A stretch of 64,000 nt of DNA from Thermococcus celericrescens (GTDB taxonomy: Archaea > Methanobacteriota_B > Thermococci > Thermococcales > Thermococcaceae). The DNA is taken from positions 1 to 64,000 of the forward strand of contig NZ_LLYW01000013.1 of assembly GCF_001484195.1 (NCBI RefSeq), read 5' to 3'. Shown here piece after piece: positions 15,746 to 43,259 of the stretch. Made by a program: the position numbers and the translations under genes. Position 1 is the first letter of the stretch. Each line of letters begins with the position of its first letter. A model generated the notes under the pieces. It had not been told where the DNA came from and made no database searches. It saw only the letters and a list, made by a program, of their open reading frames with translations.

Positions 15746-16786
15746 TTGAACGTTAGGATCTCCACGGTTGCAACGTATAATAGGAGCCGTTACATAGAAG
15801 ACGCCATTTTACAGCGGCTTTCGACCAAAAGCGTGGCTTTTAGAAGGGAAGGACGGTTGTGGAGCCGGGAGCGGGATTTGAACCCGCGACCTGCGGATTA
15901 CGAGGGCGTCATCGCACTTAAAACGCTAAACGAAGTGTGGAGCCACGAGAAAAAGGCTTTTCTAAAGTGGCTTTCCCGTAAAATCGAGAGAGAACGGACA
16001 GTGAAGGACTACTACAACGCGCTTGAGACAATGTTCAATAACTATCAAATAACCTTGAACAAGAAGAGTATCAAAAGAACAATTGACACTCTCGGAAATA
16101 AGAAGAGGTACGTCTACGGTCTCAGGAACTTTCTCAAATATCTTGCAGAGAAGGAAATCCTCGACGAAGAGTTTTCCAAGATGCTCCAAGAGGCCGCAAA
16201 AGCAAAGCGGAGTGGTGTGAGAGAGGTTCACCTCAATGACTATGAAGTGTCTGAGGCCTGGAAGCGCATTCAGGACCGCCGCGAGGAGGCTAGGCTCCTC
16301 TTCAAGGCGATGGTTTTCTCGGGAGTCCGACTCGCTCAGCTCATCAGGATGTTCGAGAGCTATGACCCGGCGAGGCTCCAGTTTCCTCTTGAAGGTATTG
16401 CCAGGTATCCGATCAAAGACATCTCCGAGGGCAAGAAGAGGGGATTTTGGGCGTACTTCCCGGCTGACTTTGTGCCAGAGTTGAAGAAATTCTCGGCAAA
16501 GGAGACGACCGCTTGGAAGTGGGTTCGCTATGGCCGCGTTTCGGCGAATAGCATCAGGAAATGGCACTACAACTTCCTGATCCGCAGAGGTGTTCCGGCC
16601 GACATCGCAGACTTCATCCAGGGCCGCGAGGCGGAGACAGTAGGCGCCAGGCACTACCTCAACAAAACGCTTCTCGCCGACGAGTGGTATTCTGCCGTGG
16701 TTGAGGATTTGAAGCTTGTTTTGGAAGGCGGCTGGCGCTCCAAACGCGCCAGGTTGGGAATTTCCCTCAGGGGTGATGATAAATGA
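15746..16786 (+). CDS. SSV-type tyrosine recombinase, C-terminal fragment (IntC)
   Basis: The frame is open through attL but has no native start; residues encoded after 15905 are element-derived (293 codons). Joined in the circular form to IntN through the att site in the same frame, the integrase would be 365 residues. The catalytic domain shows an Arg in SGVRLAQL (box I candidate), a Lys in the GKKRGFWAYF beta-hairpin, SIRKWHYNFL with GVPADIADFIQGR (box II-like, archaeal type) and RHYLNKTLL with the likely nucleophilic Tyr. The assignment of each catalytic residue is by analogy. Separation from IntN means integration destroys the gene and traps the element unless the enzyme is supplied in trans. 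Confidence 0.88.
   Translation: MNVRISTVATYNRSRYIEDAILQRLSTKSVAFRREGRLWSRERDLNPRPADYEGVIALKTLNEVWSHEKKAFLKWLSRKIERERTVKDYYNALETMFNNYQITLNKKSIKRTIDTLGNKKRYVYGLRNFLKYLAEKEILDEEFSKMLQEAAKAKRSGVREVHLNDYEVSEAWKRIQDRREEARLLFKAMVFSGVRLAQLIRMFESYDPARLQFPLEGIARYPIKDISEGKKRGFWAYFPADFVPELKKFSAKETTAWKWVRYGRVSANSIRKWHYNFLIRRGVPADIADFIQGREAETVGARHYLNKTLLADEWYSAVVEDLKLVLEGGWRSKRARLGISLRGDDK
15776..15904. repeat. attL: left copy of 129-bp direct repeat with tRNA-Thr 3' fragment
   Basis: Identical base for base to 43347-43475. Bases 15860-15904 are the 3' 45 bp of tRNA-Thr including the encoded CCA (complement strand). Bases 15776-15859 are identical to part of the intN coding sequence and extend the repeat 84 bp beyond the tRNA end. 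Identity stops sharply at 15776. Confidence 0.95.
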
Positions 16787-17067
16787 GTGTCCTGAACTGG
16801 ATTTTTACCCTGCTCGTGCTCGGAGCGATGCTCTCTATACTATACGATATACTGTTCAGGCCCTGGAAGCTCATCAGAGAAGGCATCAATGACTTGGAGA
16901 GGCAACTCAAACTCCTCAACGGGCGCTTTGCCCGCTTGTGGGCTTTCATCATCGCGCCCTGGCTTTGGGGTGACGTGGAGCGGACTCGTGCTTTCGTTTC
17001 TCACAAGCTCACCCTGAAGAGGGCCGAGCTTGAGCTTTTTAAAAAGATACGGGAGGAGAGAAAATGA
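16783..17067 (+). CDS. Small membrane protein with amphipathic helix
   Basis: 94 residues. An N-terminal hydrophobic segment (LNWIFTLLVLGAMLSILYDIL) is followed by a basic, heptad-like helix. ATG 16783 overlaps the intC TGA. It is the first of a run of small membrane genes in the element; I recognise no family. Confidence 0.65.
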   Translation: MSVLNWIFTLLVLGAMLSILYDILFRPWKLIREGINDLERQLKLLNGRFARLWAFIIAPWLWGDVERTRAFVSHKLTLKRAELELFKKIREERK

Positions 17068-17198
17068 CTCCGCTCGGAATTATCTGGCTGTTTTTTGGTG
17101 GAGCGTTCGCGGTAGTGTTCTCTGCGCTGGCGTATGATGCTTTCACCGCCTGGTGGGAGGCCCGGAAGTGGGCCGAGCGGTACGGCAAGGAGGGATGA
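17064..17198 (+). CDS. Tiny single-span membrane protein, 44 aa
   Basis: ATG overlaps the previous TGA and follows GGGAGGAGAG. The 44 residues are one hydrophobic helix (GIIWLFFGGAFAVVFSALAY) followed by a Trp-rich charged tail (FTAWWEARKWAERYGKEG). Translational coupling with both neighbours supports it. Function unknown. Confidence 0.6.
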   Translation: MTPLGIIWLFFGGAFAVVFSALAYDAFTAWWEARKWAERYGKEG

Positions 17199-17202
17199 GG
17201 CC

Positions 17203-17352
17203 ATGATTAATCTCGCACCAGCCCTCAACAAGGCCCTCTATCAAGCAAGTTGCTACACGATTTGCCTTACTTTGACTTTCATTTTCGTGCTGACACTTGC
17301 TATGGTCACCCTCATGTTCGTGTTGATCTACTTGAAAAAATGTAGGAGGTGA
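17203..17352 (+). CDS. Small membrane protein, 49 aa
   Basis: MINLAPALNKALY leads into a long hydrophobic stretch (TICLTLTFIFVLTLAMVTLMFVLIY reported as residues 19-43) and ends KKCRR, so one membrane span with a basic cytoplasmic end. The ATG is 4 bp after the previous stop. A longer start at 17134 would overlap the 44-aa gene and is not favoured. Confidence 0.6.
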   Translation: MINLAPALNKALYQASCYTICLTLTFIFVLTLAMVTLMFVLIYLKKCRR

Positions 17353-17359
17353 GCGGAGG

Positions 17360-17527
17360 ATGGCCCGGGAGAAGCTGAATGGTTCTGGTGCTTTTGTTTG
17401 GTCGGTTAGCATCGATAAGGAGACCCATAGTATGATTAAGAAGCTTGCAAAAGAGACTGGAGTAAACAACCAGTCAGCAGTCGTCAGGATGGCGATTAGA
17501 GAGCTCTACAGGAAAATCCTTGGGTAA
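17360..17527 (+). CDS. Ribbon-helix-helix DNA-binding protein, 55 aa
   Basis: Short beta strand AFVWSVSIDKETHSM followed by KKLAKETGVNNQSAVVRMAIRELYRKI (two helices) fits the RHH/CopG fold: strand residues that enter the major groove, then helix-turn-helix dimer core. ATG overlaps a GGAGGTGAGCGGAGG Shine-Dalgarno region. It probably regulates this end of the element. Length fits the small plasmid RHH regulators. Confidence 0.72.
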   Translation: MAREKLNGSGAFVWSVSIDKETHSMIKKLAKETGVNNQSAVVRMAIRELYRKILG

Positions 17528-17742
17528 ATCCCTGTATTTTTATTTAATCCTTAACTAACCATTCCCTAACGCTTTTCTAATATTCTTAAATATCATCGCC
17601 GTAATTTCTATTTTAGGCACACTCGGGCCTTCCTCCGCTCTAATCAGTTCTGTGAAATCGCATTCATAGTTGAGGGCTGAGCCGAAAGGGAGAACACTCC
17701 CGCGGTGATGAGGCCCGCCGATAGTCCTCCGGAGGCGGTAGT
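17528..17742. other. Intergenic region with AT-rich promoter-like stretch
   Basis: 215 bp without a gene. It starts AT-rich (TTTTTATTTAATCC, TTCTTAAATATC near 17583-17594, a TATA candidate for the downstream block) and becomes GC-richer before the Shine-Dalgarno GGAGG at about 17730. I see no clear hairpin or tRNA. Confidence 0.4.
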
Positions 17743-17934
17743 ATGGACACTCTTGAGAAGCTTGAGCGGGAAGTTGAGTTTTGGAAGCGGTACAACTCGC
17801 AGCTTTCTGAAATGCTGAACGGGCTACAGAAGGAAAAGGCGAAGGCGGTTCGGGTTCTACAGCAGAAGCAGGCTGAGCTCGCACGTTTGAAGCAAGTCCG
17901 CATGGCAAAAGCGCGGAAGGTGATGGCAGTATGA
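17743..17934 (+). CDS. Coiled-coil protein, 63 aa
   Basis: Entirely helical, charged heptads: LEKLEREVEFWKRYNSQL then LQKEKAKAVRVLQQKQAEL. ATG 17743 follows GGAGGCGG, and the stop overlaps the next gene's ATG. It opens the operon of membrane proteins and probably acts as a coiled-coil adaptor (inference). Confidence 0.65.
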   Translation: MDTLEKLEREVEFWKRYNSQLSEMLNGLQKEKAKAVRVLQQKQAELARLKQVRMAKARKVMAV

Positions 17935-18284
17935 AGCCGAAGAGCCTCGCGCAGCTCATCATCTTCTTCGTGCTCGTCGGAGCGTGGTACTACATCGCCT
18001 GGCCGCTCATGACGAAGGAAGCCTTGGCGATTGGAGCGGTTGGCGGTGTCATCATGCATTGGGCGCTCACGAACAAGGGGAACAGGGCAATCGTCCTCAT
18101 CGAGCCGTTCACATCAGGCTGGCGCGTGCTACTCTACGACATGATGCTCTTGAGCTTCCTGGCGGCGCTCTGGCAGGCGAACGGCACGGCTCTTCTCGAC
18201 GCTCTGAAGAACAGCGTTCAGAACCTCGCGCTTCTCCTCGGGCTTGTGGGCGCAATCGGCGTTGACTACGGCGTGGAGGGATGA
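17931..18284 (+). CDS. Small integral membrane protein, 117 aa
   Basis: Three to four hydrophobic segments (LIIFFVLVGAWYYIAWPL, ALAIGAVGGVIMHWAL, LLYDMMLLSFLAALW, LALLLGLVGAIGVDYGV). It overlaps the coiled-coil gene by 4 bp. No family recognised; conserved-type membrane gene of the pT26-2-like block. Confidence 0.72.
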   Translation: MKPKSLAQLIIFFVLVGAWYYIAWPLMTKEALAIGAVGGVIMHWALTNKGNRAIVLIEPFTSGWRVLLYDMMLLSFLAALWQANGTALLDALKNSVQNLALLLGLVGAIGVDYGVEG

Positions 18285-18287
18285 AGA

Positions 18288-20123
18288 ATGAAGAAGACGG
18301 CGGTTTTGCTCGCTCTGTTGGTGCTCGGCTCGCTTTTGGCGGTAGGGACGGGGCAGGTTTCGGCTTTGACGGTAACTAAACATGAGTATGTTGGGCCGTT
18401 GTCATATGAGACTTTTCCTGTTGTTGTCTGGATCAATAGCACGCTTGCATCACAGTACGGGTTATCTAGTGCGGGATGGTATCTGTTTGGTGGGAGCAGG
18501 TATTCGTCTGATAGGGTTACGATAACAATTGACGGTCAGCAGCTAACTCTTTCGCCGCAGAATAATATCAACAGGGCGTACTGGTTTATCACTTCTAACA
18601 AGACGATAGGCGATGTTTACTTGGGAGATACAAAACTGACGAAGGTTGTTGCTGTTGCTGCTACTGAGACTAGTATCAGTGCTGGAGGTACAAAGTCTAT
18701 TTACACAACTGGATATTTGTGGGTGTACGGAGGTTCTGAGGTGTCTGTTGAGGGGATACCTGCATCTGACACGTCTGGCTTGAGGGTGCTTTATGTTGAG
18801 AGCGATGCGGGTAATATTGCAATTCATAATTCTGACAGTCAATATACTCACATTGTAGTATACCTTACTGGATACCCATTGACTGCTGTAACCTTTCACT
18901 TTAGCGACGGCCTCACCGGTCAGGCCCTTTCAGGGGTTACGGTGAAGGAAGGGGATTCCACGCTTGGCACTTTGAATGATGGAGACACACTGGAACTTCC
19001 AGTAAGCCAGCACACGCTAACTTTCGAGAAAAGCGGGTATTGGAGCACCACGGCGACGGTGGACGTTCAGAACGACACTTCTCTCTCCGTCGTTATGTAT
19101 CCCTCTTCAGCCGCCTTCAAGTTCGAGAACTTCCCCGAGAGCATCAACATTCTTGAAAACACGATTTACACGCTCACCTTCACACTCTCGCCGATCACGA
19201 CTGACGCGGCTTATAACACCTACCTGTCCATAAGCGGCCTCACCAGTCTCCTCGAAGTTCAGAAAGACGGCTCCACAATCAGCCCCGAGAGCGGCAAGTA
19301 CTACCTCGGCGACATTTCCTCGCCTGTTCAGGTCAGCATCAAGTTCAAGGCCGGCGCGGTCGGCCAGCACGGGTTCACTCTGAGCGTTGAGAGCCACGAC
19401 GCCATCATGTCAAAGACCTACACGACGACGAAGCAGGTCACTTATACCGTCGAGCCGCTCCCGTTTTCGGTTCAGATGCCGCAGGAATGGCAGGTCGGCC
19501 AGAATGAGCTGAGAATCAGCGAGAGCAGCGGCCAGAGCTACCTCATCACGGCAGTTCTGAAGGACAGCTCTGGAAATGAGGTCTGGAGTGACTCCCACGC
19601 CTTCAGCCCCTACGAAGCGTACTCCTTCAGCGTCAACGTGCCGAGCGAGGGCGCCTATACCCTGGAACTCCAGTGGAACGGCCAGACGGCCAGCTACGAC
19701 GTCACCGTGAACCCTGCCATCTCACTCACCACGAAGACCCTCACGGTCGAGAAGGGCGGCGAGGGCACGATTGTCCTCCACTTCAAGAACCCGAGCTCCA
19801 GCGTGCAGTACTACACGATCAAGGTGAGCGGCGGCTTCCTGCCGAGCGAGATCAACCAGAGCATTTCAGTTGCTCCACTAACGGAGAAAGACGTCAGCAT
19901 TGCCTTCGCCGTGCCGGAAGACCTGACCTACGACGCCTACGAGCTGAACGTCCAGGTTCTCCAGGGCAACGCGACGGTCTTCCAGGACAAGGTGGCCGTT
20001 AGCATCAGCGATTCTGGAGGATTCAGCCTGCTCGGCGGCGGCTCGAGCGGGAACACCTGGCTCTGGATCGGCGCCGGCGGGCTCGGGCTACTCACACTCA
20101 TAGCCCTCGCGAGGAGGAGGTGA
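18288..20123 (+). CDS. Large secreted, C-terminally anchored surface protein
   Basis: 611 residues. Signal peptide KKTAVLLALLVLGSLLAVG (2-20) with likely cleavage after QVSA; beta-rich ectodomain; a carboxypeptidase-regulatory/PEGA-like domain at about 205-270 (LSGVTVKEGDSTLGTL, then HTLTFEKSGYWST); further Ig-like repeats; and a C-terminal Gly/Ser linker, hydrophobic helix (WLWIGAGGLGLLTLIAL) and ARRR stop-transfer end. Bases about 18370-18900 use many GTT, GCT, TCT and TTT codons, whereas 18900-20120 is strongly G/C-ending. The exposed N-terminal half therefore looks replaced by recombination. Confidence 0.82.
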   Translation: MKKTAVLLALLVLGSLLAVGTGQVSALTVTKHEYVGPLSYETFPVVVWINSTLASQYGLSSAGWYLFGGSRYSSDRVTITIDGQQLTLSPQNNINRAYWFITSNKTIGDVYLGDTKLTKVVAVAATETSISAGGTKSIYTTGYLWVYGGSEVSVEGIPASDTSGLRVLYVESDAGNIAIHNSDSQYTHIVVYLTGYPLTAVTFHFSDGLTGQALSGVTVKEGDSTLGTLNDGDTLELPVSQHTLTFEKSGYWSTTATVDVQNDTSLSVVMYPSSAAFKFENFPESINILENTIYTLTFTLSPITTDAAYNTYLSISGLTSLLEVQKDGSTISPESGKYYLGDISSPVQVSIKFKAGAVGQHGFTLSVESHDAIMSKTYTTTKQVTYTVEPLPFSVQMPQEWQVGQNELRISESSGQSYLITAVLKDSSGNEVWSDSHAFSPYEAYSFSVNVPSEGAYTLELQWNGQTASYDVTVNPAISLTTKTLTVEKGGEGTIVLHFKNPSSSVQYYTIKVSGGFLPSEINQSISVAPLTEKDVSIAFAVPEDLTYDAYELNVQVLQGNATVFQDKVAVSISDSGGFSLLGGGSSGNTWLWIGAGGLGLLTLIALARRR

Positions 20124-20127
20124 GGAG

Positions 20128-22209
20128 ATGAACGTTTATGTTCCGTTTCCGTCTTTTTATCTTGAAATTAAGCGCAAGAGAGTGGACAGGGCTTTCAGGA
20201 CAATCGCCACAATAGTGGTAGCAGTTCTGATCTTGGCGGCTTTCGCAGCGGGAGCGGGAATAGGGTACTATCATGCTAAAGGTGGAGAGAAGAAGGGCAC
20301 TGCCGTTGGGGAGGACGCTAATAAAAACGCCACACGGAAGGATATACTCAATGGTACGGATTATGCGGAATGGTTGAAGCTCTCAACAAAGGCTCAACAG
20401 GAGGCATACGTGCAGCTTGCCAAATATACTCAGCAACTTATGAGTGATTTTGTGAGCTATGACTATCAGCAGCAGGGATCGCTCGGAGATCTGAAAGTAC
20501 AAGTATATGGCCCCGACAAAGTCTATGGTTTCAGTGCGTTTCCAGTCCAAATCAAGATAACTGTGGATAAGAAAAAACCAGATTGGGCCTACTTGCACCT
20601 GCACAGTGTTAAAGTTTACGTCATAAACACTGAAACCGGGCAGAAAATCTGGACGAGGACGTGGTCATGGTCTGGAGACGACGTTCCACTCCTTAACGGC
20701 GATGAATTCGTTTTGGGGACCGTACTCAAGGTTCCCGACGATTATGCCTACATGGTCCGTGACGCAGTGTACTCCGGAAACTTCAACAGGGCAGTATACC
20801 ACAATCTAACAAACGCAGTAGTGCCACGTTTTGAAATCGGGGTCGAGATTGATGCACAAAGAGAAATGTGGGAGTGGAAGACTGCAGACAGCCAAGAAGA
20901 GTGCAATAACCTCGCAGGAGGTAAGGAGCATGTCTATGACAGTAACTCCTCAACATGTTACATCCTCACTGACATGGTTGACACCGACGTCACTGGCGAA
21001 ACAACCAGCGCCTACATGCATACCTCTGGAGTCCCTGACTTTGGACAGTGGGGCAATTTAACTGCGAGCGCTCCAAAGAGCATGTTAAATTCTGAGTACG
21101 TGGAAATGTATCAAATCTTCCAGCAGCGGCTTTACGGGGCCCTGTCTAACTTTGAAGTCATCAGTATGGCGACGCCAATTCACGTGATGGACTCAACGGC
21201 AAACTGGAAGTTCATATTTGAAGCCGTTCCAGATTACTTTGACCCGCTAACAAAAATCAACGGAAAACTCCCGGTTTTTGGCGACGACTTCAGGATTGCC
21301 GTTGCGAGAATTATCAAAGGCGGACAAACTTGGGAAATAGCCTACACCAAGTCCACTAAAATGACCGACTTTACCACATCATATGAACTAGGCCTGCCCG
21401 TGAAGTACACCTCAACAAACGACACAATAGACTACGTCGTCGCGGGCCTGGCTTATCTTGAGCTCACACGTGACGATGGAACCAAAATCCCTATATGGTA
21501 CATGGTGGTGCCGAAGGTCTCTGTCCAGGAGAACATTGAGGTAGCGTTCAAAGACAGCAGAATACGACCCCTCGTCGAGCTCACGAACAAGTCCCAAGTC
21601 TCTGATGCAGACATCCAAGCGGCGCAGCAGCTTGTTGATACTATCAAACAGGAACTCGAAAAGAAGAAGCTCCAGGCTGATGAACTTAGGGCAAAAGCTG
21701 AGACAATGAATATTCCTGAGGGCATTGAGTATGCAAAGAGGGCGAAAGACGCGTATGAGAACTCCGAGAGGGGCCTTGACAAATATCTTGAGGAAGTCAA
21801 GAAGGGCAAGGATGGGAAGTGGGCGCTCAACTGGCTGAACTACGCGAGAAAGATGGAAGACGCCGGTGACTTCTGGCTGAACGCGGCGATAAAGATAACC
21901 AATGGCCTCAAAGAGCAGGCCGAATGGAATGCAGAACAGGCGCAGAACATTGAAGGCCTTGCAAAACAGTACGAACCACACTTTGACATCTATGGATTCC
22001 TTCAGAACGGGATACAGTTACCCTTCGGATTGACACTTGTGGATGTCCTCGTGATAATCATTGCAGCGGCGGTTACCTGGTTCGGCAGACAATTCCTTGG
22101 GCCAATAGGCTCGATCCTTGGATTGGTCATCCTCGTGGGCTGGTTCTCCGGCAAATTCATCGGAGAACACCTGTTAGGCGGACTTTTTGACAAGCTGAAG
22201 TTTTGGTGA
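20128..22209 (+). CDS. Large membrane protein with extracytoplasmic and coiled-coil domains
   Basis: 693 residues. A basic N-terminus and one transmembrane helix (IATIVVAVLILAAFAAGAG, about 27-45) anchor a large polar domain containing WTRTWSWSGDDVP. A helical, coiled-coil region follows (about 490-600, QELEKKKLQADELRAKAE), and then three closely spaced hydrophobic segments (VDVLVIIIAAAVTWF, GSILGLVILVGWFSG). It is the largest protein of the element. Position between surface protein and multispan proteins suggests a structural part of an envelope-spanning assembly (inference). Confidence 0.8.
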   Translation: MNVYVPFPSFYLEIKRKRVDRAFRTIATIVVAVLILAAFAAGAGIGYYHAKGGEKKGTAVGEDANKNATRKDILNGTDYAEWLKLSTKAQQEAYVQLAKYTQQLMSDFVSYDYQQQGSLGDLKVQVYGPDKVYGFSAFPVQIKITVDKKKPDWAYLHLHSVKVYVINTETGQKIWTRTWSWSGDDVPLLNGDEFVLGTVLKVPDDYAYMVRDAVYSGNFNRAVYHNLTNAVVPRFEIGVEIDAQREMWEWKTADSQEECNNLAGGKEHVYDSNSSTCYILTDMVDTDVTGETTSAYMHTSGVPDFGQWGNLTASAPKSMLNSEYVEMYQIFQQRLYGALSNFEVISMATPIHVMDSTANWKFIFEAVPDYFDPLTKINGKLPVFGDDFRIAVARIIKGGQTWEIAYTKSTKMTDFTTSYELGLPVKYTSTNDTIDYVVAGLAYLELTRDDGTKIPIWYMVVPKVSVQENIEVAFKDSRIRPLVELTNKSQVSDADIQAAQQLVDTIKQELEKKKLQADELRAKAETMNIPEGIEYAKRAKDAYENSERGLDKYLEEVKKGKDGKWALNWLNYARKMEDAGDFWLNAAIKITNGLKEQAEWNAEQAQNIEGLAKQYEPHFDIYGFLQNGIQLPFGLTLVDVLVIIIAAAVTWFGRQFLGPIGSILGLVILVGWFSGKFIGEHLLGGLFDKLKFW

Positions 22210-22221
22210 GGTGGTGAAAAG

Positions 22222-22701
22222 ATGGCGGACGGGAAGGGCGGGGGCGCCGGCCCCCGTTTTTCCGGATGGAGTTTCCGGCTAGTAGTGATGGTCGCAATGG
22301 CATTGATAGCGTGGTACGCGGGCCAGCACAACGTTACAGCGCAGGAGTTCAATGAGGCTTTCGCTAGCATTCCAGTGACCGCCATCCTGCTAGCAATGTT
22401 CTTCGACTACGGGCTGGACAGTGGAAAGCTCTACGACAAGATGATCAAAAAGCCAAGCAACCGCATGCTCGGGCTGGTTTACGCCATACTGGCCACGGGG
22501 GTGTTCTTCTTCGCCTTCCTGTGGCTGATATCGGGCAGCATCCAGGCAGCCAGCGCTGCGGCAGTGGTGGCCTCGGCCCTGGTAGCGCTGATAGTGCTCA
22601 TGCCAAGGACTGGAACCAGCGAGTGGCTCCTCTGGCTCTGGCTGGCTGAAACGCTCGTGACTGCCGGAAAGTTCCTGACAATCCTACCGGGGGTGCATTG
22701 A
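22222..22701 (+). CDS. Four-span membrane protein A (paralogue of the next gene)
   Basis: 159 residues with four hydrophobic segments. It shares order and motifs with the following protein: the VTAQEFNEAFASIPV / VTVGDYVTAIAKTPV segment after the first span, then a short polar loop with Lys/Asp, and the LIVLMPRTGTSEWLLWLWLA / YIVMPETGDDELILFLWIA segment before the last span. ATG 22222 has GAGGTGGTGAAAAG upstream. Function unknown. Confidence 0.78.
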   Translation: MADGKGGGAGPRFSGWSFRLVVMVAMALIAWYAGQHNVTAQEFNEAFASIPVTAILLAMFFDYGLDSGKLYDKMIKKPSNRMLGLVYAILATGVFFFAFLWLISGSIQAASAAAVVASALVALIVLMPRTGTSEWLLWLWLAETLVTAGKFLTILPGVH

Positions 22702-22702
22702 A

Positions 22703-23260
22703 GTGGTTGATTGGGCTGCTCAAGGAGCGAAATTAAGGACCACGGACTACTTGGCTAAAGTAATAATCGTTGCAGTGCTCGGTGGATTCGGGCTGATGTG
22801 GGCCGCCAACAAAGCAGTCACGGTCGGGGACTATGTTACTGCAATCGCAAAGACACCAGTGTGGATTGTCCTTGCAATAGAGCTCCTTGACAAGTTCTCT
22901 GACAAGAAGGACTACACATATTGGGGCATCACAATGAGCAGGAGATACGGCGGTCACCCCGTTCTTTGGGGCATCATTATCGCAGTGCTCGCATTCGCAG
23001 GAACCCTCTACGTCATGACTGGAACGATAGCAATGAACATGAGTTCGTACTCTGCTGGAGTCCTGTTAGCAGCAATAACCTACTCCCTCTACATAGTCAT
23101 GCCGGAAACCGGAGACGACGAGCTGATCTTATTCCTCTGGATAGCGGCCACTATTGCCACGAAAGGCCAATACCTCAATGAGGCCGTCTTCAGCCTGCCC
23201 TTCATCAGCAAGCTCGTGAACGTCGTGATCAGCAAGGTTCCGATTTCACTACCCATCTGA
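22703..23260 (+). CDS. Four-span membrane protein B (paralogue of the previous gene)
   Basis: 185 residues starting at GTG 22703, one base after the upstream stop. The topology is the same as protein A, with the shared MPxTG-x(3-4)-L-x-L-W motif before the last helix and an extra C-terminal amphipathic tail (LPFISKLVNVVISKVPISLPI given as the last 21 residues, 165-185). Likely a tandem duplication that has diverged, perhaps giving two subunits of one membrane complex. Confidence 0.78.
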   Translation: MVDWAAQGAKLRTTDYLAKVIIVAVLGGFGLMWAANKAVTVGDYVTAIAKTPVWIVLAIELLDKFSDKKDYTYWGITMSRRYGGHPVLWGIIIAVLAFAGTLYVMTGTIAMNMSSYSAGVLLAAITYSLYIVMPETGDDELILFLWIAATIATKGQYLNEAVFSLPFISKLVNVVISKVPISLPI

Positions 23261-23271
23261 GGTGACTCGCA

Positions 23272-23607
23272 ATGCTCGGCAGGGTTGCAGCGGCTCTCAC
23301 TGCCTACCTCCTCTGCATTTTCCATTTCAGCGACGCAATGACTTCAGTAGCCGGCCTCTTCGGCCTCACGGGCTTTTGGGCGCTCTTCATACCCTCGGCC
23401 CTGATCGGCCTTGCAGTCTACAGAATAGCCGACCTGGACAATTGGGGGCTGTGGGACGCGGCCAGCTTCCTTATCGTGGGCAGTATTGCGATGCTTGCAA
23501 TGACTTCAGACCCTAAAGCAACGATGTTCGAGCTCGTCAAGGGTGTGGTTTCATTCAGCGTTGCAGCCATACTCGGTGCACTCGCCCTCCGCGGAGATGG
23601 GCGCTGA
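23272..23607 (+). CDS. Small multispan membrane protein, 111 aa
   Basis: Four hydrophobic segments with few charges (AALTAYLLCIFHF, GLTGFWALFIPSALIGLAVY, ASFLIVGSIAMLAMT, VVSFSVAAILGALAL). ATG 23272 after GAGGTGACTC. The TGA overlaps the next ATG. No family recognised. Confidence 0.7.
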   Translation: MLGRVAAALTAYLLCIFHFSDAMTSVAGLFGLTGFWALFIPSALIGLAVYRIADLDNWGLWDAASFLIVGSIAMLAMTSDPKATMFELVKGVVSFSVAAILGALALRGDGR

Positions 23608-23849
23608 TGGACGCGAACAGTCTCATCTCTCAAGGGCAAGAACTCGCTCACACTCACCCGTACCTCGCCCTCGGGATTATCCTAATCTTCATCGGCGTCC
23701 TGGCAAAGGGCAAGGTGAGTCTAGTATTCTATGCCCTCGGTGCTCTAGCGCTCTTAAAGTCATTCGGGTTAGTTGACACTTTCTTTTCTTTCCTGAAAGA
23801 AGTCCCGGACATGCTCAAAGAAGCGATCGGAGGATTAGGAGGTGTTTGA
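23607..23849 (+). CDS. Small membrane protein, 80 aa
   Basis: Two hydrophobic segments (YLALGIILIFIGVLAKG and VSLVFYALGALALLKSFGL) with an amphipathic C-terminal helix. ATG shares its first base with the upstream TGA. Layout is pilin- or holin-like in size but no motif proves either. Confidence 0.68.
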   Translation: MDANSLISQGQELAHTHPYLALGIILIFIGVLAKGKVSLVFYALGALALLKSFGLVDTFFSFLKEVPDMLKEAIGGLGGV

Positions 23850-23852
23850 AGA

Positions 23853-24671
23853 ATGAGAAAGAAGGAAAGACAGCTTATAACAATCGGCCTGGTGGTCCTC
23901 TTCGCCGCAATCGCCTGGTGGGCGTACGGCCACCAGAGCGGCGGAGGCTGGTTCGACCTTAGCGGCTGGCTCAACGACGAGAACAACACCACGACCGACA
24001 ACGCGACCACCTACCAGCTCGCCGTGAGCGGCCTCGCGGCGACCGTCGATCAGCAGACTGGTCACGTGACCGTTAGCTTCAGCCTGACGAACGAGGAGCA
24101 CTTCAACATCAGCAGTGTCCAGGTTCTCTACGCGCTCAACGTCGCCGACCCGAACAACGCGAGCTACACCACCCTCACGGCAACCGAAACCAATAGCACC
24201 TGGAGCGCTGAAATCCCGGCCAGCTTCGGCGATGTCGTCTACTACAAGGTCGAGGTCACTTATGACACCGACAAGATCCTTGTAAGTGACGTCCAGAGCA
24301 TCACTGTCACTGACACGACCGCTCCGACTCTGAATTCAGTCAGCATCAACTATAACAGCACCGCGGGCGTCTTCGACCTGACCTTCAACGCCACTGACAA
24401 CGACGCCATAGCGACCTACTACGTCTACTACCTCGACCTCGGGACCAACAACACCCTGCCGGCCAACGCGACCTTCAGCGTCGTGAACAGCACCACCCCG
24501 GAGCTTAACATCTCCAACATTACGGACGGCCACTACTACGCGCTCTACTTCGTCGTTGAGGATCTGAGCAACAACAAGGCCATGCTCTACAACGAGACCG
24601 ACCCGTACATCATCCTCACCAACAGTACCGCGACCTGGCCAGTCGAGATAACCGAACAGGCCTCGAGCTGA
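23853..24671 (+). CDS. Heavily sequon-rich surface protein with Ig/FN3-like folds
   Basis: 272 residues: a single N-terminal signal-anchor (LITIGLVVLFAAIAWWAYG, about 8-26), an Asn/Thr-rich linker (ENNTTTDNATT), then two beta-sandwich-like domains (about 50-150 and 155-265). About 15 N-X-S/T sequons are present, so it is probably one of the most heavily N-glycosylated proteins here, via AglB. G/C-ending codons match the second half of the 18288-20123 gene. Function unknown, likely surface-exposed. Confidence 0.75.
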   Translation: MRKKERQLITIGLVVLFAAIAWWAYGHQSGGGWFDLSGWLNDENNTTTDNATTYQLAVSGLAATVDQQTGHVTVSFSLTNEEHFNISSVQVLYALNVADPNNASYTTLTATETNSTWSAEIPASFGDVVYYKVEVTYDTDKILVSDVQSITVTDTTAPTLNSVSINYNSTAGVFDLTFNATDNDAIATYYVYYLDLGTNNTLPANATFSVVNSTTPELNISNITDGHYYALYFVVEDLSNNKAMLYNETDPYIILTNSTATWPVEITEQASS

Positions 24672-24682
24672 GGTGGGCTGAA

Positions 24683-25171
24683 ATGTACGCCCACCGCTCC
24701 TCCCCTTCATTTTCCAGAGTGATTCTACGCCTGTTTGCGATAGTTAGTCTAATTTTTTTGCTCGGATTCGGCTATTCGACATTTGCCGAGCACGACGAGC
24801 TCAAAGAGAGACTCTATGAACTCGGTTACCCCGAGAGCGGCTACATCTTCACCAACAACACGATTCTGTGGGCCGACGGGCACTTAACAATCGTCCAGGG
24901 CGCTTATGTCGAGGACTACCCAATCACCGCGGAGCAGGCGTACGAGATCGCGAGGAACTACCTTGCGAGCTACAACAAGAAGCTGAAAGAATACGACTCC
25001 AGCTACCATCTTGAGCCCGAGAAGAAGTCTCTGGCGGAAAAAGAGGAGAACGGGAACCGCTATTGGGTCTTTGAAGTCTACCTCCACACTGGCGGGAGCA
25101 AGATATTCACAGGCTTCGCTTACGTCAATCGCAAAACCGGAACGGTCAAGATGAAGGGCCTCTTGGGGTGA
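24683..25171 (+). CDS. Secreted PepSY-like domain protein
   Basis: 162 residues. One N-terminal membrane/signal helix (VILRLFAIVSLIFLLGFGYS) precedes a domain with ITAEQAYEIARNYLASY and a later WVFEVYLHTGG-x-FAYVNRKTGTV, the pattern of PepSY (helix then strand, with conserved D/RKTGxV). PepSY domains inhibit or chaperone secreted proteases and ligands. Stop overlaps the next gene. Confidence 0.68.
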   Translation: MYAHRSSPSFSRVILRLFAIVSLIFLLGFGYSTFAEHDELKERLYELGYPESGYIFTNNTILWADGHLTIVQGAYVEDYPITAEQAYEIARNYLASYNKKLKEYDSSYHLEPEKKSLAEKEENGNRYWVFEVYLHTGGSKIFTGFAYVNRKTGTVKMKGLLG

Positions 25172-25176
25172 TGGTC

Positions 25177-25635
25177 ATGAGAATTTGGAACTTTCTCATG
25201 GTTCTAGTGTTGATTTCAGGAATAATGGCTTCGGCCGGCTGCATTAGGCAGGACGGGGGCGCTCTCATCATAGACTTCAACAACGAAACTTACACCCTGC
25301 CCCTGCCAGGAAACAACACTACAACATCAAACGAGACAAACAGCCCCACCTCAACTCCAACATTGTACACGTACACCGAACAGGTCCAAGTAGGGGAAGA
25401 ATTAGTCATTAAAGAGCTGAACTTCACGATCCGGCCAGATTATGACTTCACAAAAGGCAAATTCTTCTTCATAACGCCGAGCGGAGTTTATTGGGAGCCA
25501 ATGAACATCACTGTCGGCAACGTCACGATTCTTGGAAAGGAGTACTTTGTCGGAACGACTGTCTACATGGTGGAAATCACAATCCAAAGCCCTGAACAGC
25601 TGACGATTGTAGTGAAAGAGGTGAATGAAGCATGA
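25177..25635 (+). CDS. Putative lipoprotein
   Basis: 152 residues with signal peptide and lipobox-like IMASAGCIRQ (Cys at about 21), Thr/Ser/Asn-rich linker with several sequons, then a beta-rich domain. ATG 25177 is preceded by GGGGTGATGG; GTG 25168 overlaps the previous stop and is an alternative. Probably membrane-tethered on the outer face. Confidence 0.7.
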   Translation: MRIWNFLMVLVLISGIMASAGCIRQDGGALIIDFNNETYTLPLPGNNTTTSNETNSPTSTPTLYTYTEQVQVGEELVIKELNFTIRPDYDFTKGKFFFITPSGVYWEPMNITVGNVTILGKEYFVGTTVYMVEITIQSPEQLTIVVKEVNEA

Positions 25636-26453
25636 GCTTCAGAGGTATGAAGTTACTAGTTCCTGTTATATTATATATGATAATAGGCTTCGGGTCAGCT
25701 TCGGCGGCATCATTCTACAAGTGGAGCGGGAGCCTCGAGGTCAGGCAGAGCATCTACATTGAGGACCTCACCATCACAGTCGACCAGGACAACGCAACTA
25801 AGGAACTCGCCCTCATCGTCAGAGATGATGGCAGTATTCTCGGCCTGCTCAAAGCCGGTGAGGACGGCGAGTTTGAAGGGCTGAGCATCAGCTTCAACGA
25901 GTTCAACGGCTACGGCGTAATTGACATCTCGAGCGAAAAGCCCTTTGCCGTGACATTCAATGCGACAGAGGACTATCAGAAGCAGATTGACGGGCTGAAG
26001 CAGGAGAACGCGCAGCTCAAGAGCGAGAATGAAAAGCTCTCGAAGCAGGTTCAGAGCCTTCAGACTGAGAACAAGCAACTCAAGCAACAGGTCTCCGACC
26101 TGAAGAACAAGCTGAAGAACCAGCCCAACACCGCCGAGCTGAACGCGAAGCTCGTGAACCTCACAAAGGAGAACCGCGCCCTAAAGGCCGAGCTGGCGAA
26201 CATGACGAACAAGTACAACGCCGTCAAGGCGAAGGCTGACTTTCTCGAGCAGCAGAACGAGGAATACCGCAAGATGATTCAGAGCCTGCTGAAAGAGACT
26301 GCACAGGGGAGCGAGCAAGACTACGTCGAGAAAGCGAAGAAGGAGAAGCTCATCGGCTCCGTGCTGCTGAAGAGCATAGTGTTTGCCCTAGTGGTCGTGG
26401 GGCTGATTGGATACGGCCTGTACAGGAAAAAGAGGAGTTGGGAGTTAACATAG
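25632..26453 (+). CDS. Secreted coiled-coil protein with C-terminal membrane anchor
   Basis: 273 residues: signal peptide (LLVPVILYMIIGFGSASA), small beta domain (about 27-110), a long heptad coiled coil (about 112-230; QIDGLKQENAQLKSENEKL, then LKQQVSDLKNKLKN) and a C-terminal transmembrane helix (LLKSIVFALVVVGLIGYGLY) with KKRS cytoplasmic end. The stalk-like shape suits a surface spacer or adhesin-like part of the assembly (inference). Overlaps the lipoprotein gene by 4 bp. Confidence 0.77.
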   Translation: MSFRGMKLLVPVILYMIIGFGSASAASFYKWSGSLEVRQSIYIEDLTITVDQDNATKELALIVRDDGSILGLLKAGEDGEFEGLSISFNEFNGYGVIDISSEKPFAVTFNATEDYQKQIDGLKQENAQLKSENEKLSKQVQSLQTENKQLKQQVSDLKNKLKNQPNTAELNAKLVNLTKENRALKAELANMTNKYNAVKAKADFLEQQNEEYRKMIQSLLKETAQGSEQDYVEKAKKEKLIGSVLLKSIVFALVVVGLIGYGLYRKKRSWELT

Positions 26454-26578
26454 CTATAACACAGGAGGAGGCGGGAGTTTTGAGGGGAAAAGGCCGACGG
26501 CAGGGAAGGAATCGTGTAAAAACATTATGTGTGTGAAAGGGGTTATTTTATTTTCAGTAAAGAAATGGAGGGGTTAGC
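26454..26578 (+). promoter_or_regulatory. Intergenic promoter region before the ATPase gene
   Basis: 125 bp. TTATTTTATTTTC at about 26543-26555 is a TATA candidate, and GGAGGGG at about 26567-26573 is the Shine-Dalgarno for GTG 26579. It suggests the ATPase operon can be transcribed separately from the membrane block. Confidence 0.4.
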
Positions 26579-28009
26579 GTGGAGTATGTTAGCAACAATC
26601 CAGCCTCATGGGAACCCGTGACTAAAGGACGCCTAAACGAGATTTACCTAGGGCGAGGCGTCTCAAGCATCTTCAACCCCTACACCGGCAAAAACACCCT
26701 TGACAGGTGGTTGGGCATAAATGAGGACGACGCGAACCATGTGCTCTTCCTTGGCCCTTCAGGGTTCCAGAAGTCCACGACAATGAAAGCATTCCTACAA
26801 GAGCTCTGGCTGAACACTAGGTGGGGTCGAAATCAAGAACCCCCTCTCATCATCGTGTTTGAGAGGAAGTATGACAGGGCAAAAGCACAGTTGGTCAAGC
26901 GGACCTTTTATCAGCTCTTAAGGGAGCGCGGAGAAGGCTGGCTTAGGGCCAGAATGGACCAAGTTACCGAGCTTAAGCTTTACATCCAGATGCTTGAACT
27001 TCCTGCCTATGAGGGCCAGCTCGGCCTAATGGGCGACTTTGCACTCGGGTGGGAAAATATCCTCGGCTGGTTGAAGTACGACAAACAGCACACCCTCTTT
27101 AGCCTGTTCGGGATAAAGCCTCAAGCTTTCCCGATTCGCAGGTTTGTCTTCAACCCGACGCGGAACCCGCATCACATTGCCCTTGACTCGGGGCCAGAAA
27201 CCGAGGTCATTGCGACCTTCCTCAAGTACGAGCGCCTGGACTTCGAGGACGTGGCCAAGGTAGTCAACATCAACCCCAACACCATTTACGCGCAGATAAT
27301 CAAGTCCGCGTGGGACGAGGAAAAAGCCAGGGATCCTGACGAGCTGGTCTTTGAAGCCAAGAGGATTTACGATGAAATGCTTGAGTTTCTCGAGGTGGAG
27401 AACAAGAAGCCACCCACGAGCTTATGGGGCGTTTACAACGTTGCTAAGAGCCTCAAAAAGGTTCGTTGGCTAAAAACGAGTGGCAAGGACCTCTTCGAGC
27501 AGTTGGACAACACGAAAATCAACGTGATTGACTTTAGCCAGAACTCCGACCTGACCGAGAGCGCAAAGAACATCATCTTCAAGAAAGTCGTAGAGTGGGT
27601 TTTGAACGAATACGTCCAGGAGAAGGAGACGGCCGTCTTCATCGCTGGCGATGAGATCCAGAATTACCTCCGCTCCCGGTGGGGCAAGGCAATGGCCGCC
27701 AAGCTCTTCAGAGAAGGCCGTTCCAACCAGGTGAACTTTCTCGCCGCCACACAGTACTTGCACTCCCTCCCATCTGAACTCATATACGGAGCCAGCCACA
27801 TCGCCATTCTCGGGACTCTCGCTTCAGCTGACGATTACACGCTCCTGAAAAAGGTCGTTCCTGATTTTGACGTCAGCTTTGAGCGTATCGTTGCTTCTTC
27901 GCCCTCGGAAGTTGAGGAATTGAAGAGGAAGTACCGCGGGCGCGGGTATTTCATTTATAACAAGTTCTTCACCGAGCGGATCCATTTCCGCCCTTCACAA
28001 ACCCTGTGA
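26579..28009 (+). CDS. VirB4/HerA-FtsK-type ATPase of the element
   Basis: 476 residues from GTG 26579. P-loop GPSGFQKST at residues 59-67 (Phe-Gln in place of the usual small residues), an inserted middle region, and Walker B AVFIAGDEIQ with D358-E359, followed by an arginine-finger region (RSRWGKAMAAKLFREGRS) and ATQYLHSLPSELIYGASH, similar to TraG/VirB4-HerA motor ends. Such motors drive DNA transfer, secretion or DNA packaging. Following the membrane/secreted block it is the natural energy source for that apparatus. pT26-2 relatives carry a comparable ATPase (knowledge-based). Confidence 0.82.
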   Translation: MEYVSNNPASWEPVTKGRLNEIYLGRGVSSIFNPYTGKNTLDRWLGINEDDANHVLFLGPSGFQKSTTMKAFLQELWLNTRWGRNQEPPLIIVFERKYDRAKAQLVKRTFYQLLRERGEGWLRARMDQVTELKLYIQMLELPAYEGQLGLMGDFALGWENILGWLKYDKQHTLFSLFGIKPQAFPIRRFVFNPTRNPHHIALDSGPETEVIATFLKYERLDFEDVAKVVNINPNTIYAQIIKSAWDEEKARDPDELVFEAKRIYDEMLEFLEVENKKPPTSLWGVYNVAKSLKKVRWLKTSGKDLFEQLDNTKINVIDFSQNSDLTESAKNIIFKKVVEWVLNEYVQEKETAVFIAGDEIQNYLRSRWGKAMAAKLFREGRSNQVNFLAATQYLHSLPSELIYGASHIAILGTLASADDYTLLKKVVPDFDVSFERIVASSPSEVEELKRKYRGRGYFIYNKFFTERIHFRPSQTL

Positions 28010-28020
28010 GGTGAGTTGAG

Positions 28021-28803
28021 GTGCTCGAGTGGTTGAGGAGGAAAAAGAAAAGAGAAGATGGCCTTCCAAGGAGGAATTATTATATCGAACCCCAAAGCGG
28101 GCTCCAAGAGAAGGTCCTTGAGCGGGCCGAACAGACCGAACAGAAGTTGATGCACGAGGAAAAGCCAGTCCTCCAGGACTGGAGGCAGAAACAGGCCGTC
28201 CGGTCCCTAAAGTTTGTGAGAACTCACCACCAAGTTCTGAAGGTTTACTACAAATTCAAAAGCGGCGACAGCATGGTGAAAGAGATCGTAACCCTTGGCT
28301 ACGTCCAGGGCGTTGCGATAGCTCCCAACAACATGCTCGTGATTGCCTACACTCCAAGGCCGCCAAGCTGGCTTGATGAAGTGTTTCTGTCCCTTGCTAG
28401 GGTTCTTGGTAGAGGGCCACAACAGAAGCTCCTCTGGACCTTCCCACAGTTCGCCCCACTCTCTGCCATGGATACAACGATAATCGTGGAGACCTCTAGG
28501 ATAATGAGCACGGTGTGGGGCGACTTTGCAATGCCTCCAGAACTGAGCGAGGAGCAAATAGCAGCCTTCTATGCAATCTACCAGAAGAGCCAGACGCTCG
28601 AGGCCCTGATTGATAACGTGCTCAAGAAGACCGGTTCGCTCGTGAACACGGCTCTGGACATTAACCCGTTCGTCAAGAGCTACCAGCTCATCGAGAAGAC
28701 CAAGAACCAGAAGAAGAAAGAAGAGCGCTTCAAGGTGGCCGAAGGTGGAGAAATCATCCTTAGCAGAGGAGAGAAAGACATTTGGGAGGAATTCAACATA
28801 TGA
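28021..28803 (+). CDS. Hypothetical protein linked to the ATPase
   Basis: 260 residues from GTG 28021, with basic N-terminus WLRRKKKRED, no signal peptide, and a region of alternating strands (VYYKFKSGDSMVKEIVTLGY, ending in GVAIAPNNMLVIAYTPRP) followed by helices. No family recognised. Its position directly after the ATPase and 4-bp overlap with the next gene suggest a cytoplasmic partner of the motor. Confidence 0.72.
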   Translation: MLEWLRRKKKREDGLPRRNYYIEPQSGLQEKVLERAEQTEQKLMHEEKPVLQDWRQKQAVRSLKFVRTHHQVLKVYYKFKSGDSMVKEIVTLGYVQGVAIAPNNMLVIAYTPRPPSWLDEVFLSLARVLGRGPQQKLLWTFPQFAPLSAMDTTIIVETSRIMSTVWGDFAMPPELSEEQIAAFYAIYQKSQTLEALIDNVLKKTGSLVNTALDINPFVKSYQLIEKTKNQKKKEERFKVAEGGEIILSRGEKDIWEEFNI

Positions 28804-29168
28804 GTGAGGTAGCTGAACCAACCACCCCTCCACAGGACGGACAGAAGGTCCTTGCAAAGGATCTCTTCAAGGAAATAATTGAACAGCAGGAAACCGTTGA
28901 AGTTCAAGAAGAGCTCCCTCAAGATGAAGCGGTAGCCGTTGAAGAGAAGAAGCAAAAGAAGAGCAGTGGAAAGCGCCGTTACATCTCCATCACCGACAGA
29001 ACTAACTCGGCGCTGATGCTCCTCGTGCTCCGGAGACTGAAGACAGCGGAGGAGTACTCGTTCCAGCCCGACGTCAAGGAGAACATCCGCGAGGCTGTAG
29101 TGCTTTTGAAAAGAATCATCGAAGAGAACGAGGATATGTTTCCGGGAGTGCTAAGGTCTAAACCTTAA
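28800..29168 (+). CDS. Hypothetical acidic/basic two-part protein, 122 aa
   Basis: The N-terminal 55 residues are low-complexity (Gln/Glu-rich, then EEKKQKKSSGKRR), followed by a compact helical domain (YISITDRTNSALMLLVLRRLK to the end). A disordered basic linker plus small helical domain suits a nucleic-acid-binding accessory. ATG 28800 overlaps the upstream TGA. Function unknown. Confidence 0.65.
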   Translation: MSEVAEPTTPPQDGQKVLAKDLFKEIIEQQETVEVQEELPQDEAVAVEEKKQKKSSGKRRYISITDRTNSALMLLVLRRLKTAEEYSFQPDVKENIREAVVLLKRIIEENEDMFPGVLRSKP

Positions 29169-40725: not shown

Positions 40726-40896
40726 ATGAGCTTCCAGACGGCTCTGGAACTCTACTCTGAAAGGGAGCGGCAGGAGCGCAGAAAAATCCTCGCGGCGGCG
40801 CAGGGCTTGAAGAAGCGCGTTCAGGCGTTTCAGAGAACCTACCGCAAGGACATCATGCGGGAAGTCATGGAGGTCCTCCTTGGGGGTGACGAGTGA
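40726..40896 (+). CDS. Small helical basic protein, 56 aa
   Basis: ATG 40726 with GGGGGGTGAG upstream. LELYSERERQERRKILAAA and KKRVQAFQRTYRKD make a basic helix pair, possibly nucleic-acid binding. It abuts the methylase gene. Confidence 0.55.
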   Translation: MSFQTALELYSERERQERRKILAAAQGLKKRVQAFQRTYRKDIMREVMEVLLGGDE

Positions 40897-42801: not shown

Positions 42802-43155
42802 ATGCCGAGGAAAAGGCGCCTGCCTGATGTCGTGACCCTGAAACTCCCCACTTATGAACAGCCGGGAGACATTTTTGACGTGATCTTTGAAAGTGAAGAA
42901 GCCCGCAAAATGGCCGAACAGATTGTAGAGTACATCAAAAAGAACAAACGCATGGGTTGGGAAGAGTACAGAGAGCTCTTCCCTCCAGAGAAGCATTACC
43001 TCTACTTCCGCGTCATGAAACGCATGGAGGCCCTTGGCCTCATTGGTCGTGGGGCTTACAACACGTACATCCTCTCCAAGAAGTTCTGTGATAGGTTAGA
43101 GTATCTCTCGAAGCTCTGGCTCTTCAAGATTGGAAAAGCCGAGGAACTCTGGTGA
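42802..43155 (+). CDS. Winged-helix-like DNA-binding protein
   Basis: 117 residues. MAEQIVEYIKKNKRMGWEEYRELFP, then YFRVMKRMEALGLIGRGAYNTYILS resembles a winged helix (helices then a wing strand). It precedes intN and may regulate excision/integration. ATG 42802 after GAGGTGGTG. Confidence 0.62.
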   Translation: MPRKRRLPDVVTLKLPTYEQPGDIFDVIFESEEARKMAEQIVEYIKKNKRMGWEEYRELFPPEKHYLYFRVMKRMEALGLIGRGAYNTYILSKKFCDRLEYLSKLWLFKIGKAEELW

Positions 43156-43206
43156 TTATCATGACCGCAATGGCTATATCCAGTCCGCAGGTATTACCTC
43201 AGTGTA

Positions 43207-43231
43207 GCCACATGTGGCCACGTGTGGCCAC
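43207..43231 (+). promoter_or_regulatory. Operator-like tandem repeats upstream of intN
   Basis: GCCACATGTGGC (43207-43218) overlaps two direct copies of TGTGGCCAC (43213-43221 and 43223-43231), each centred on the palindrome TGGCCA and spaced 10 bp. They are followed by ACAATATTG, a weak TATA, and the Shine-Dalgarno GGAGGAGGG. Probably a binding site for an element regulator or the RHH part of the integrase. Confidence 0.55.
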
Positions 43232-43259
43232 ACAATATTGGGCGGAGGAGGGCCTTGAA

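What the first reader, a model, noticed from the sequence alone, without database searches (positions are those of the whole stretch)
16783..28803. Element-encoded membrane/secreted assembly with a VirB4/HerA-like motor
At least 15 consecutive genes encode small multispan proteins, sequon-rich surface proteins, a stalk-like coiled-coil protein, a lipoprotein, a PepSY-like protein, then a P-loop motor. Together they look like an envelope-spanning apparatus for DNA transfer, vesicle release or attachment. No capsid gene is evident. The function of this block in pT26-2-like plasmids is not settled to my knowledge.
Basis: inference. Interest (0 to 1): 0.72.

Follow-up and report, generated by a model that had tools for sequence, protein, structure and literature searches.

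The report
Plasmid transfer machine with exchangeable parts
A block of about 15 genes in a mobile element of a heat-loving archaeon (the known but unexplained pT26-2 plasmid core) encodes surface proteins, membrane proteins and a DNA-pumping motor; comparing 27 such elements shows that its outermost recognition head, a second surface protein and its motor are swapped independently between elements, which fits a machine or particle that carries the plasmid into new cells.

Summary
The gene block is real and lies in a complete integrated element bounded by a 135-bp att repeat. It is the conserved region of the pT26-2 plasmid family, already published as a putative secretion or DNA-transfer module (PMC6972569), so the block itself is not new. 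The motor is HerA-clade by sequence and predicted structure; VirB4 is not specifically supported. No virion, type IV pilus, relaxase, pleolipovirus or fusellovirus component was recognised.

What I did not find in the papers held is that the "core" is a mosaic. In T26-5p (window 18288-20123) the N-terminal ~180 residues are unrelated between elements (14 head families in 26 elements, ~14% identity), while the stalk behind them is mostly 55-84% identical, up to 88%. T26-6p has six allele classes and the motor pair g14-g15 four types. All three assort independently of the other genes, and each motor type is rejected as a clade in the exterior-gene tree. All 27 Thermococcales elements compared are different combinations.

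Haloarchaeal plasmids spread in self-encoded vesicles (pR1SE/apHPV) share this plan: variable head, conserved base, HerA-like motor. I favour a membrane-particle transmission module (0.45) over a conjugation-like channel (0.27). Transfer itself is untested.

The parts
15770..15904 (+). left att repeat of the integrated element, inside the integrase ORF
   Evidence: 99% identical to 43341-43475
15746..16786 (+). long fragment of the split integrase, Int(C)
   Evidence: PF16795 E 9e-49
16783..17067 (+). g1, 94 aa, one N-terminal TM helix; patchy conservation
17931..18284 (+). g3, T26-4p-like small membrane protein
   Evidence: alignment A8, 38-86% identity to Thermococcales homologues, 40% to pMEFER01
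18288..20123 (+). g4, T26-5p: signal peptide, exchangeable head, conserved stalk, C-terminal TM and RRR tail
18363..18887 (+). exchangeable head domain of T26-5p (residues 26-200), found in no other of 94 genomes
18894..20040 (+). conserved stalk of T26-5p
   Evidence: 59-77% identity in alignment A13
20128..22209 (+). g5, T26-6p: N-terminal TM, two Ig-like domains, helical domain, C-terminal TM hairpin; one of six allele classes
   Evidence: PF22092, PF22265, PF20984; PDB 2wb7
22222..22701 (+). g6, T26-7p paralogue, four TM helices
22703..23260 (+). g7, second T26-7p paralogue
23272..23607 (+). g8, T26-8p, four TM helices
23607..23849 (+). g9, T26-9p: two hydrophobic helices joined by a basic loop (pilin-like outline)
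   Evidence: pMEFER01 equivalent
23853..24671 (+). g10, T26-10p: TM anchor and sequon-rich ectodomain
   Evidence: 15 sequons, P 0.0005
24683..25171 (+). g11, T26-11p, anchored; weak PepSY resemblance
25168..25635 (+). g12, sequon-rich protein with a lipobox-like ASAGC motif
   Evidence: sequence
25632..26453 (+). g13, T26-13p: signal peptide, small domain, coiled coil, C-terminal TM
26579..28009 (+). g14, T26-14p: HerA-clade P-loop ATPase, motor type A
28021..28803 (+). g15, T26-15p, cytosolic partner that diverges together with the motor
28782..29168 (+). g16, found only in elements with motor type A
36023..38119 (+). t26-22p-like replication-associated protein
   Evidence: homologue in pT26-2 and pGE2
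43152..43496 (+). short fragment of the split integrase with the right att copy 43341-43475, overlapping tRNA-Thr 43431-43507 (-)

Best explanation
The block is the transmission module of a pT26-2-family element. It most likely builds element-specific membrane particles (vesicle- or pleomorphic-virion-like) that carry the element's DNA to new cells. T26-5p is the recognition spike: an exchangeable head on a conserved, membrane-anchored stalk. T26-6p, T26-10p, T26-13p and the lipoprotein form the rest of the exterior; T26-4p, 7p, 8p and 9p are the membrane part. The HerA-clade ATPase with its partner T26-15p drives DNA into the particle. Shown here: gene content, predicted topology, HerA kinship of the motor, and independent exchange of head, T26-6p and motor. 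Inferred: that the head binds a recipient's surface, that DNA is the cargo, and that a particle rather than a cell-cell channel is made.
For: Head swap on a conserved stalk, as in the replaceable lectins of Thermococcales spindle viruses (PMC12934983). Vesicle-borne haloarchaeal plasmids (apHPV/pR1SE) have the same plan: a large vesicle protein with variable N-terminal and conserved C-terminal domains, lectin/SH3/S-layer-like surface proteins, and a conserved HerA/VirB4/packaging-like ATPase (PMC10818511). HerA-clade motor. Mostly membrane-anchored or secreted products. No relaxase or coupling protein among 29 element proteins scanned. Vesicles with DNase-resistant DNA from T. gammatolerans are reported in PMC6972569.
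Against: No particle has been shown for any pT26-2 element. No sequence relation to apHPV, pleolipovirus or fusellovirus proteins was found. The subtilisin-like protease of apHPVs is not seen in the block. T26-9p looks at least as much like a conjugative pilin. Head swapping would serve a mating channel equally well.
Confidence: 0.45

Rival explanations
1. A contact-dependent DNA-transfer channel, working like conjugation or the Ced/Ted systems. T26-9p would be a VirB2/CedA1-like two-helix pilin, T26-7p and T26-8p the pore, the HerA-type ATPase the motor, and the T26-5p head the partner-recognition adhesin, as TraN is in F-like plasmids.
For: All T26-9p family members inspected are short, with two hydrophobic helices joined by a loop holding K/R; the pMEFER01 copy has the same outline and sequons at its C-terminus. 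CedA1/TedC pilins share a fold with VirB2 without sequence similarity (PMC9905601). TraN variants set recipient specificity (PMC9246713).
Against: No Pfam, PHROG or PDB match of T26-9p to VirB2/TrbC/CedA1. The motor's 50 best PDB matches are HerA-type, none VirB4. No relaxase or VirD4 seen.
Confidence: 0.27
2. A surface system that serves the host cell or element competition (adhesion, contact-dependent antagonism, protein secretion) rather than DNA transfer.
For: The core persists in integrated copies without replication genes, and deletion of TKV2 or TKV3 slows T. kodakarensis growth, as cited in PMC6972569. Variable recognition domains also occur in adhesins and antagonism systems (general knowledge).
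Against: The elements examined at full length (window, pT26-2, pGE2, pMEFER01) all carry an integrase and/or replication genes; the motor belongs to a DNA-translocase clade; no toxin or effector domain was found.
Confidence: 0.15
3. The mosaic is mainly an artefact of gene conversion between co-resident copies or of assembly, and says nothing about function.
For: The TKV2/TKV3-like pair in one genome (L049, L062) is identical from T26-5p to T26-8p and unlike in the motor; an inversion between TKV2 and TKV3 is published.
Against: The pattern is seen between different genomes, several of them single-contig; heads have no detectable similarity between elements with 80-88% identical stalks; related heads recur beside unlike motors; every motor type is rejected as a clade in the exterior tree.
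Confidence: 0.05

Closest known systems
pT26-2 plasmid family conserved region (t26-4p to t26-15p; Soler 2010, Badel 2019 PMC6972569)
   Same: Same genes, same order, T26-6p with its own Pfam domains, type I split integrase, t26-22p-like protein.
   Different: Motor type A, 37% identical to T26-14p of pT26-2; duplicated T26-7p; a head family of its own; extra gene g16.
apHPV plasmids (pR1SE type) that spread in self-encoded vesicles of haloarchaea (PMC10818511)
   Same: Plan: large surface protein with variable N-terminal and conserved C-terminal part, several surface proteins, conserved HerA/VirB4/packaging-like ATPase.
   Different: No sequence relation found (tblastn of the motor against plasmid records finds pT26-2-family elements only); no subtilisin-like protease in the block; vesicle transfer shown there, not here.
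Ced/Ted DNA-import systems and conjugative T4SS (PMC9905601)
   Same: Two-helix protein with basic loop, polytopic proteins, HerA/VirB4-superfamily ATPase.
   Different: No sequence match of T26-9p to VirB2/CedA1; motor nearest HerA; no VirD4 or relaxase found.
Pleolipoviridae
   Same: Broad plan: four-TM protein, anchored spike, P-loop ATPase.
   Different: No profile similarity for any component other than the P-loop.
Lectin proteins of Thermococcales spindle-shaped viruses (PMC12934983)
   Same: Anchored surface proteins whose recognition domains are gained, lost or replaced between close relatives.
   Different: No T26-5p head or stalk found in viral contigs or phage records; only two of ten heads tested give even weak laminin-G hits.

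Membership tests
pT26-2 plasmid family | Seven core genes t26-5, 6, 7, 11, 13, 14, 15 in conserved order | tested here: met
   All present in order
pT26-2 plasmid family | Type I (split) integrase with att at a tRNA gene, as in Thermococcales members | tested here: met
   135-bp att repeat, split integrase, tRNA-Thr
pT26-2 plasmid family | Core inherited as one unit (claim in PMC6972569) | tested here: not met
   Motor types rejected as clades in the exterior tree; head and T26-6p uncorrelated with neighbours. A claim about the family, not a criterion of membership.
apHPV (pR1SE-type vesicle plasmids) | Homologues of the pR1SE core proteins | tested here: inconclusive
   pR1SE record not held; tblastn of the motor against plasmids finds no haloarchaeal record
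apHPV (pR1SE-type vesicle plasmids) | Subtilisin-like protease (ORF7) in the core | tested here: not met
   No such Pfam hit in the block
apHPV (pR1SE-type vesicle plasmids) | Core proteins present in DNA-carrying vesicles | not testable with these tools
   needs vesicle proteomics
Conjugative T4SS / Ced-Ted | VirB4/CedB-type ATPase | tested here: inconclusive
   HerA models and structures match best, VirB4-type model weaker, no VirB4 in the 50 best PDB matches
Conjugative T4SS / Ced-Ted | VirB2/CedA1-like two-helix pilin | tested here: inconclusive
   T26-9p outline fits; no sequence match
Conjugative T4SS | Relaxase and VirD4 coupling protein | tested here: not met
   None among 29 element proteins scanned with Pfam; about ten small ORFs were not scanned
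Pleolipoviridae | VP3-, VP4- and VP8-like proteins | tested here: not met
   hhalign probabilities at or below 8% except 33% over 23 P-loop residues
Fuselloviridae / spindle-shaped viruses | Two-helix major capsid protein of VP1/VP3 type | tested here: not met
   SSV1 VP3 has a sequon-bearing loop and basic C-terminus, T26-9p a basic loop; no profile match
Type IV pilus / archaellum | Secretion ATPase, PilC/FlaJ-like platform, class III pilins | tested here: not met
   No such Pfam hit in the block; class III signal peptides not tested

The most novel reading that the evidence does not exclude
A transmission machine built by free recombination of parts: elements of hyperthermophilic archaea exchange an extracellular recognition head, a second surface protein and a DNA-motor cassette independently of each other behind a shared exterior, giving each element its own combination. 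This would be a vesicle-type transmission system of Thermococcales, unrelated by sequence to pR1SE but convergent with it in plan.
Probability: 0.35. Interest if true: 0.8.

Novelty: new member of a known kind. Interest (0 to 1): 0.58.

Why it matters
How pT26-2 plasmids move has been open since 2010. The mosaic pattern points to the part of the machine that should touch other cells (the T26-5p head) and supplies natural pairs that differ in few parts (for example L058/L040 with near-identical exterior but different head, T26-6p and motor; the TKV2/TKV3-like pair in one genome with identical exterior and different motors). This turns 'what does this block do' into a direct test. If it is a vesicle system, a second archaeal lineage would have reached the same plan as pR1SE.

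Tried and rejected
(a) T26-15p structure: low confidence (pLDDT 65) and no PDB match at E<0.001; the idea that it is a split-off VirB4 N-terminal domain is untested. (b) A VirB2-like stretch at the C-terminus of T26-6p (8exh, E 0.61): treated as chance for a hydrophobic hairpin. (c) PDB hits of the T26-9p profile to designed apolar coiled coils: composition artefact. (d) phrog_7035 (up to 1e-103): an unannotated family whose source I could not see. (e) Relatives outside Thermococcales and Methanococcales: none in genome contigs (which also missed Methanococcales and is therefore insensitive) or in the phylum. (f) Link of heads, stalk or motor to viruses: none found; the seven-member head profile was too diverse for a pattern scan. 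(g) Recent head exchange between orders: the pMEFER01 head resembles that of L045 (E 3e-14, 29%), but its stalk is about as diverged (34%), so this is better read as an old shared head type than as transfer. (h) The first g3 identity column was contaminated by T26-5p ORFs and was redone.
Full report
OBSERVATION. The window lies in a Thermococcales genome (2.34 Mb, 73 contigs; 94 genomes of the order searched). It is part of an integrated element with a 135-bp direct repeat at 15770-15904 and 43341-43475, the right copy overlapping tRNA-Thr(CGT), and an archaeal integrase split between the two ends. The element is therefore about 27.7 kb and apparently complete, with a t26-22p-like protein at 36023-38119 and a weak DNA-methylase hit at 40893.

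IDENTITY OF THE BLOCK. Gene by gene it is the conserved region of the pT26-2 family: T26-4p at 17931, T26-5p at 18288, T26-6p at 20128 (three Pfam domains named after it; PDB 2wb7 E 1e-86), duplicated T26-7p at 22222 and 22703, T26-8p at 23272, T26-9p at 23607, T26-10p at 23853, T26-11p at 24683, a lipoprotein at 25168, T26-13p at 25632, T26-14p at 26579 and T26-15p at 28021. Badel and colleagues (PMC6972569) described this region in 2019 as a putative secretion system, named VirB4/HerA and B204 as motor analogues, and proposed vesicle or contact transfer. In the elements I aligned the order is conserved; truncated contigs account for most missing genes. The Methanocaldococcus plasmid pMEFER01 also has positional equivalents of T26-9p (MDV start, two hydrophobic helices, basic loop) and T26-10p (TM plus sequon-rich ectodomain), which are not in the published seven-gene core.

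THE MOTOR. All 20 family members hit the HerA central domain (best 4e-11); the VirB4-type AAA_10 model hits 12 (best 7e-5) and the TrwB domain 12 (best 0.002). An AlphaFold2 model (mean pLDDT 78.5, pTM 0.81) has as its 50 best PDB matches HerA proteins and HerA-type translocases (archaeal HerA, HerA-NurA, TdpAB, SIR2-HerA, DndH), E from 1e-10, none VirB4. TM-scores of about 0.45 show a distant relation. Among predicted viral structures there are HerA-like and packaging ATPases, weaker. Working like a HerA-type DNA translocase is well supported; calling it VirB4 is not.

THE CORE IS A MOSAIC (new here, as far as the held papers show; Soler 2010 was not held). First, T26-5p. Across 23 sequences the signal peptide is conserved, residues 31-180 have 13-20% mean pairwise identity, and residues 211-570 have 63-79%. 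By blastp at E<1e-5 the heads of 26 elements fall into 14 families; pairs with stalks 80-88% identical have heads with no detectable similarity. At DNA level the change is abrupt on both sides: L058 against L040 is 88-100% identical in nearly all windows from -360 to +60, 13-42% in nearly all windows from 60 to 720, and 75-100% from 1080 to 2040 relative to the ORF start used. Head types recur in elements with unlike motors: L039/L043 head 77%, motor 38%; L052/L060 head 82%, motor 39%; L054/L059 head 72%, motor 38%. This is replacement, not fast point mutation. The window's own head occurs in no other of 94 genomes. Two of ten heads tested give weak laminin-G hits (E 0.02 and 0.04); the rest give none.

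Second, T26-6p. Pairwise identity is below 45% in 81% of pairs, yet reaches 89% between the window and L059 and 82% between the window and L047. It forms six classes at 50% identity, and its divergence is uncorrelated with either neighbour (r -0.02 with the T26-5p stalk, P 0.57; 0.09 with T26-7p, P 0.09).

Third, the motor. Four types (A, B, C1, C2) are separated by long branches; type A, the window's, is one clade at 100% support. T26-14p and T26-15p diverge together (r 0.76, P 0.0005) but hardly with T26-11p (r 0.14, P 0.06); the link with T26-8p is weak but present (r 0.27, P 0.001). Holding each motor type together on the T26-10p/T26-11p tree is rejected (AU p 3e-46, 1e-4, 5e-5, 1e-64; the groups were defined on the motor tree, and the tests use quick trees). 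g16 occurs only with motor A. The pair in one genome (L049, L062) is 97-100% identical from T26-5p to T26-9p, then 39% in the motor. Other pairs, such as L058/L040 (exterior 93%, motor 32%, T26-6p 32%, head 17%), come from different genomes. The internal positive controls g10-g11 (0.76), g11-g13 (0.80) and g14-g15 (0.76) show that the statistic sees linkage where it exists. Scoring motor, head, T26-6p, T26-7p, T26-8p and T26-11p types gives 27 distinct combinations in 27 Thermococcales elements (two elements lack a head because their contigs end). Badel and colleagues reported congruent core trees and a core kept as one unit, though they noted transfers between Thermococcales genera; with this larger set that does not hold.

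WHAT IT DOES. A swapped head on a conserved anchored stalk is what recognition proteins facing a variable partner look like. Three precedents were read: lectin proteins of Thermococcales spindle viruses, with non-homologous replacement (PMC12934983); TraN variants in conjugation (PMC9246713); and ORF6 of vesicle-borne haloarchaeal plasmids, with variable N-terminal and conserved C-terminal domains, in a module that also has a HerA/VirB4/packaging-like ATPase and lectin/SH3/S-layer-like surface proteins (PMC10818511). The last is the closest match in plan, so I favour a membrane-particle mode of transmission; sequence relation to it was not found. The conjugation-like rival gains from T26-9p: about 80 aa, N-terminal amphipathic stretch, hydrophobic helix, basic loop, hydrophobic helix in the members inspected, the outline of CedA1/VirB2 pilins, which themselves lack mutual sequence similarity. 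The SSV1 coat protein differs: sequon-bearing loop, basic C-terminus. Profile comparison with pleolipovirus and SSV1 proteins is negative.

LIMITS. Topology comes from hydropathy only. One genome per species limits the view of recent exchange. Methanococcales could be represented by pMEFER01 only. Pairwise-identity correlations treat related elements as exchangeable; the AU tests are the stronger evidence. No result here shows that DNA moves or that any head binds anything.

Noticed in passing
30085-30888 (-): Two-TM protein with a weak GOLD/emp24 hit (E 0.004), conserved in opposite orientation downstream of the block in many elements, annotated emp24/gp25L/p24 family in pGE2. A possible accessory of the module.
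   Followed up: partly
28782-29168 (+): g16 occurs only in elements with motor type A, so that motor cassette has three genes; what the extra protein does is unknown.
   Followed up: partly
L038:3541-3819 (-) and L038:2630-3124 (-): pMEFER01 carries unrecognised positional equivalents of T26-9p and T26-10p, so the shared core is probably larger than seven genes.
   Followed up: partly
40893-42013 (+): Weak DNA-methylase hit (PF01555, E 2e-5) next to a protein of unknown family that looks nuclease-like by eye; possibly a restriction-modification pair on the element.
   Followed up: no
7713-10526 (-): Long RtcB-like ORF that appears to contain an intein (CLHEET...VVHNCG); outside the element.
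   Followed up: no
31025-32185 (+): Predicted lipoprotein of 386 aa in the variable region, with homologues in a few other elements (L046, L062).
   Followed up: no
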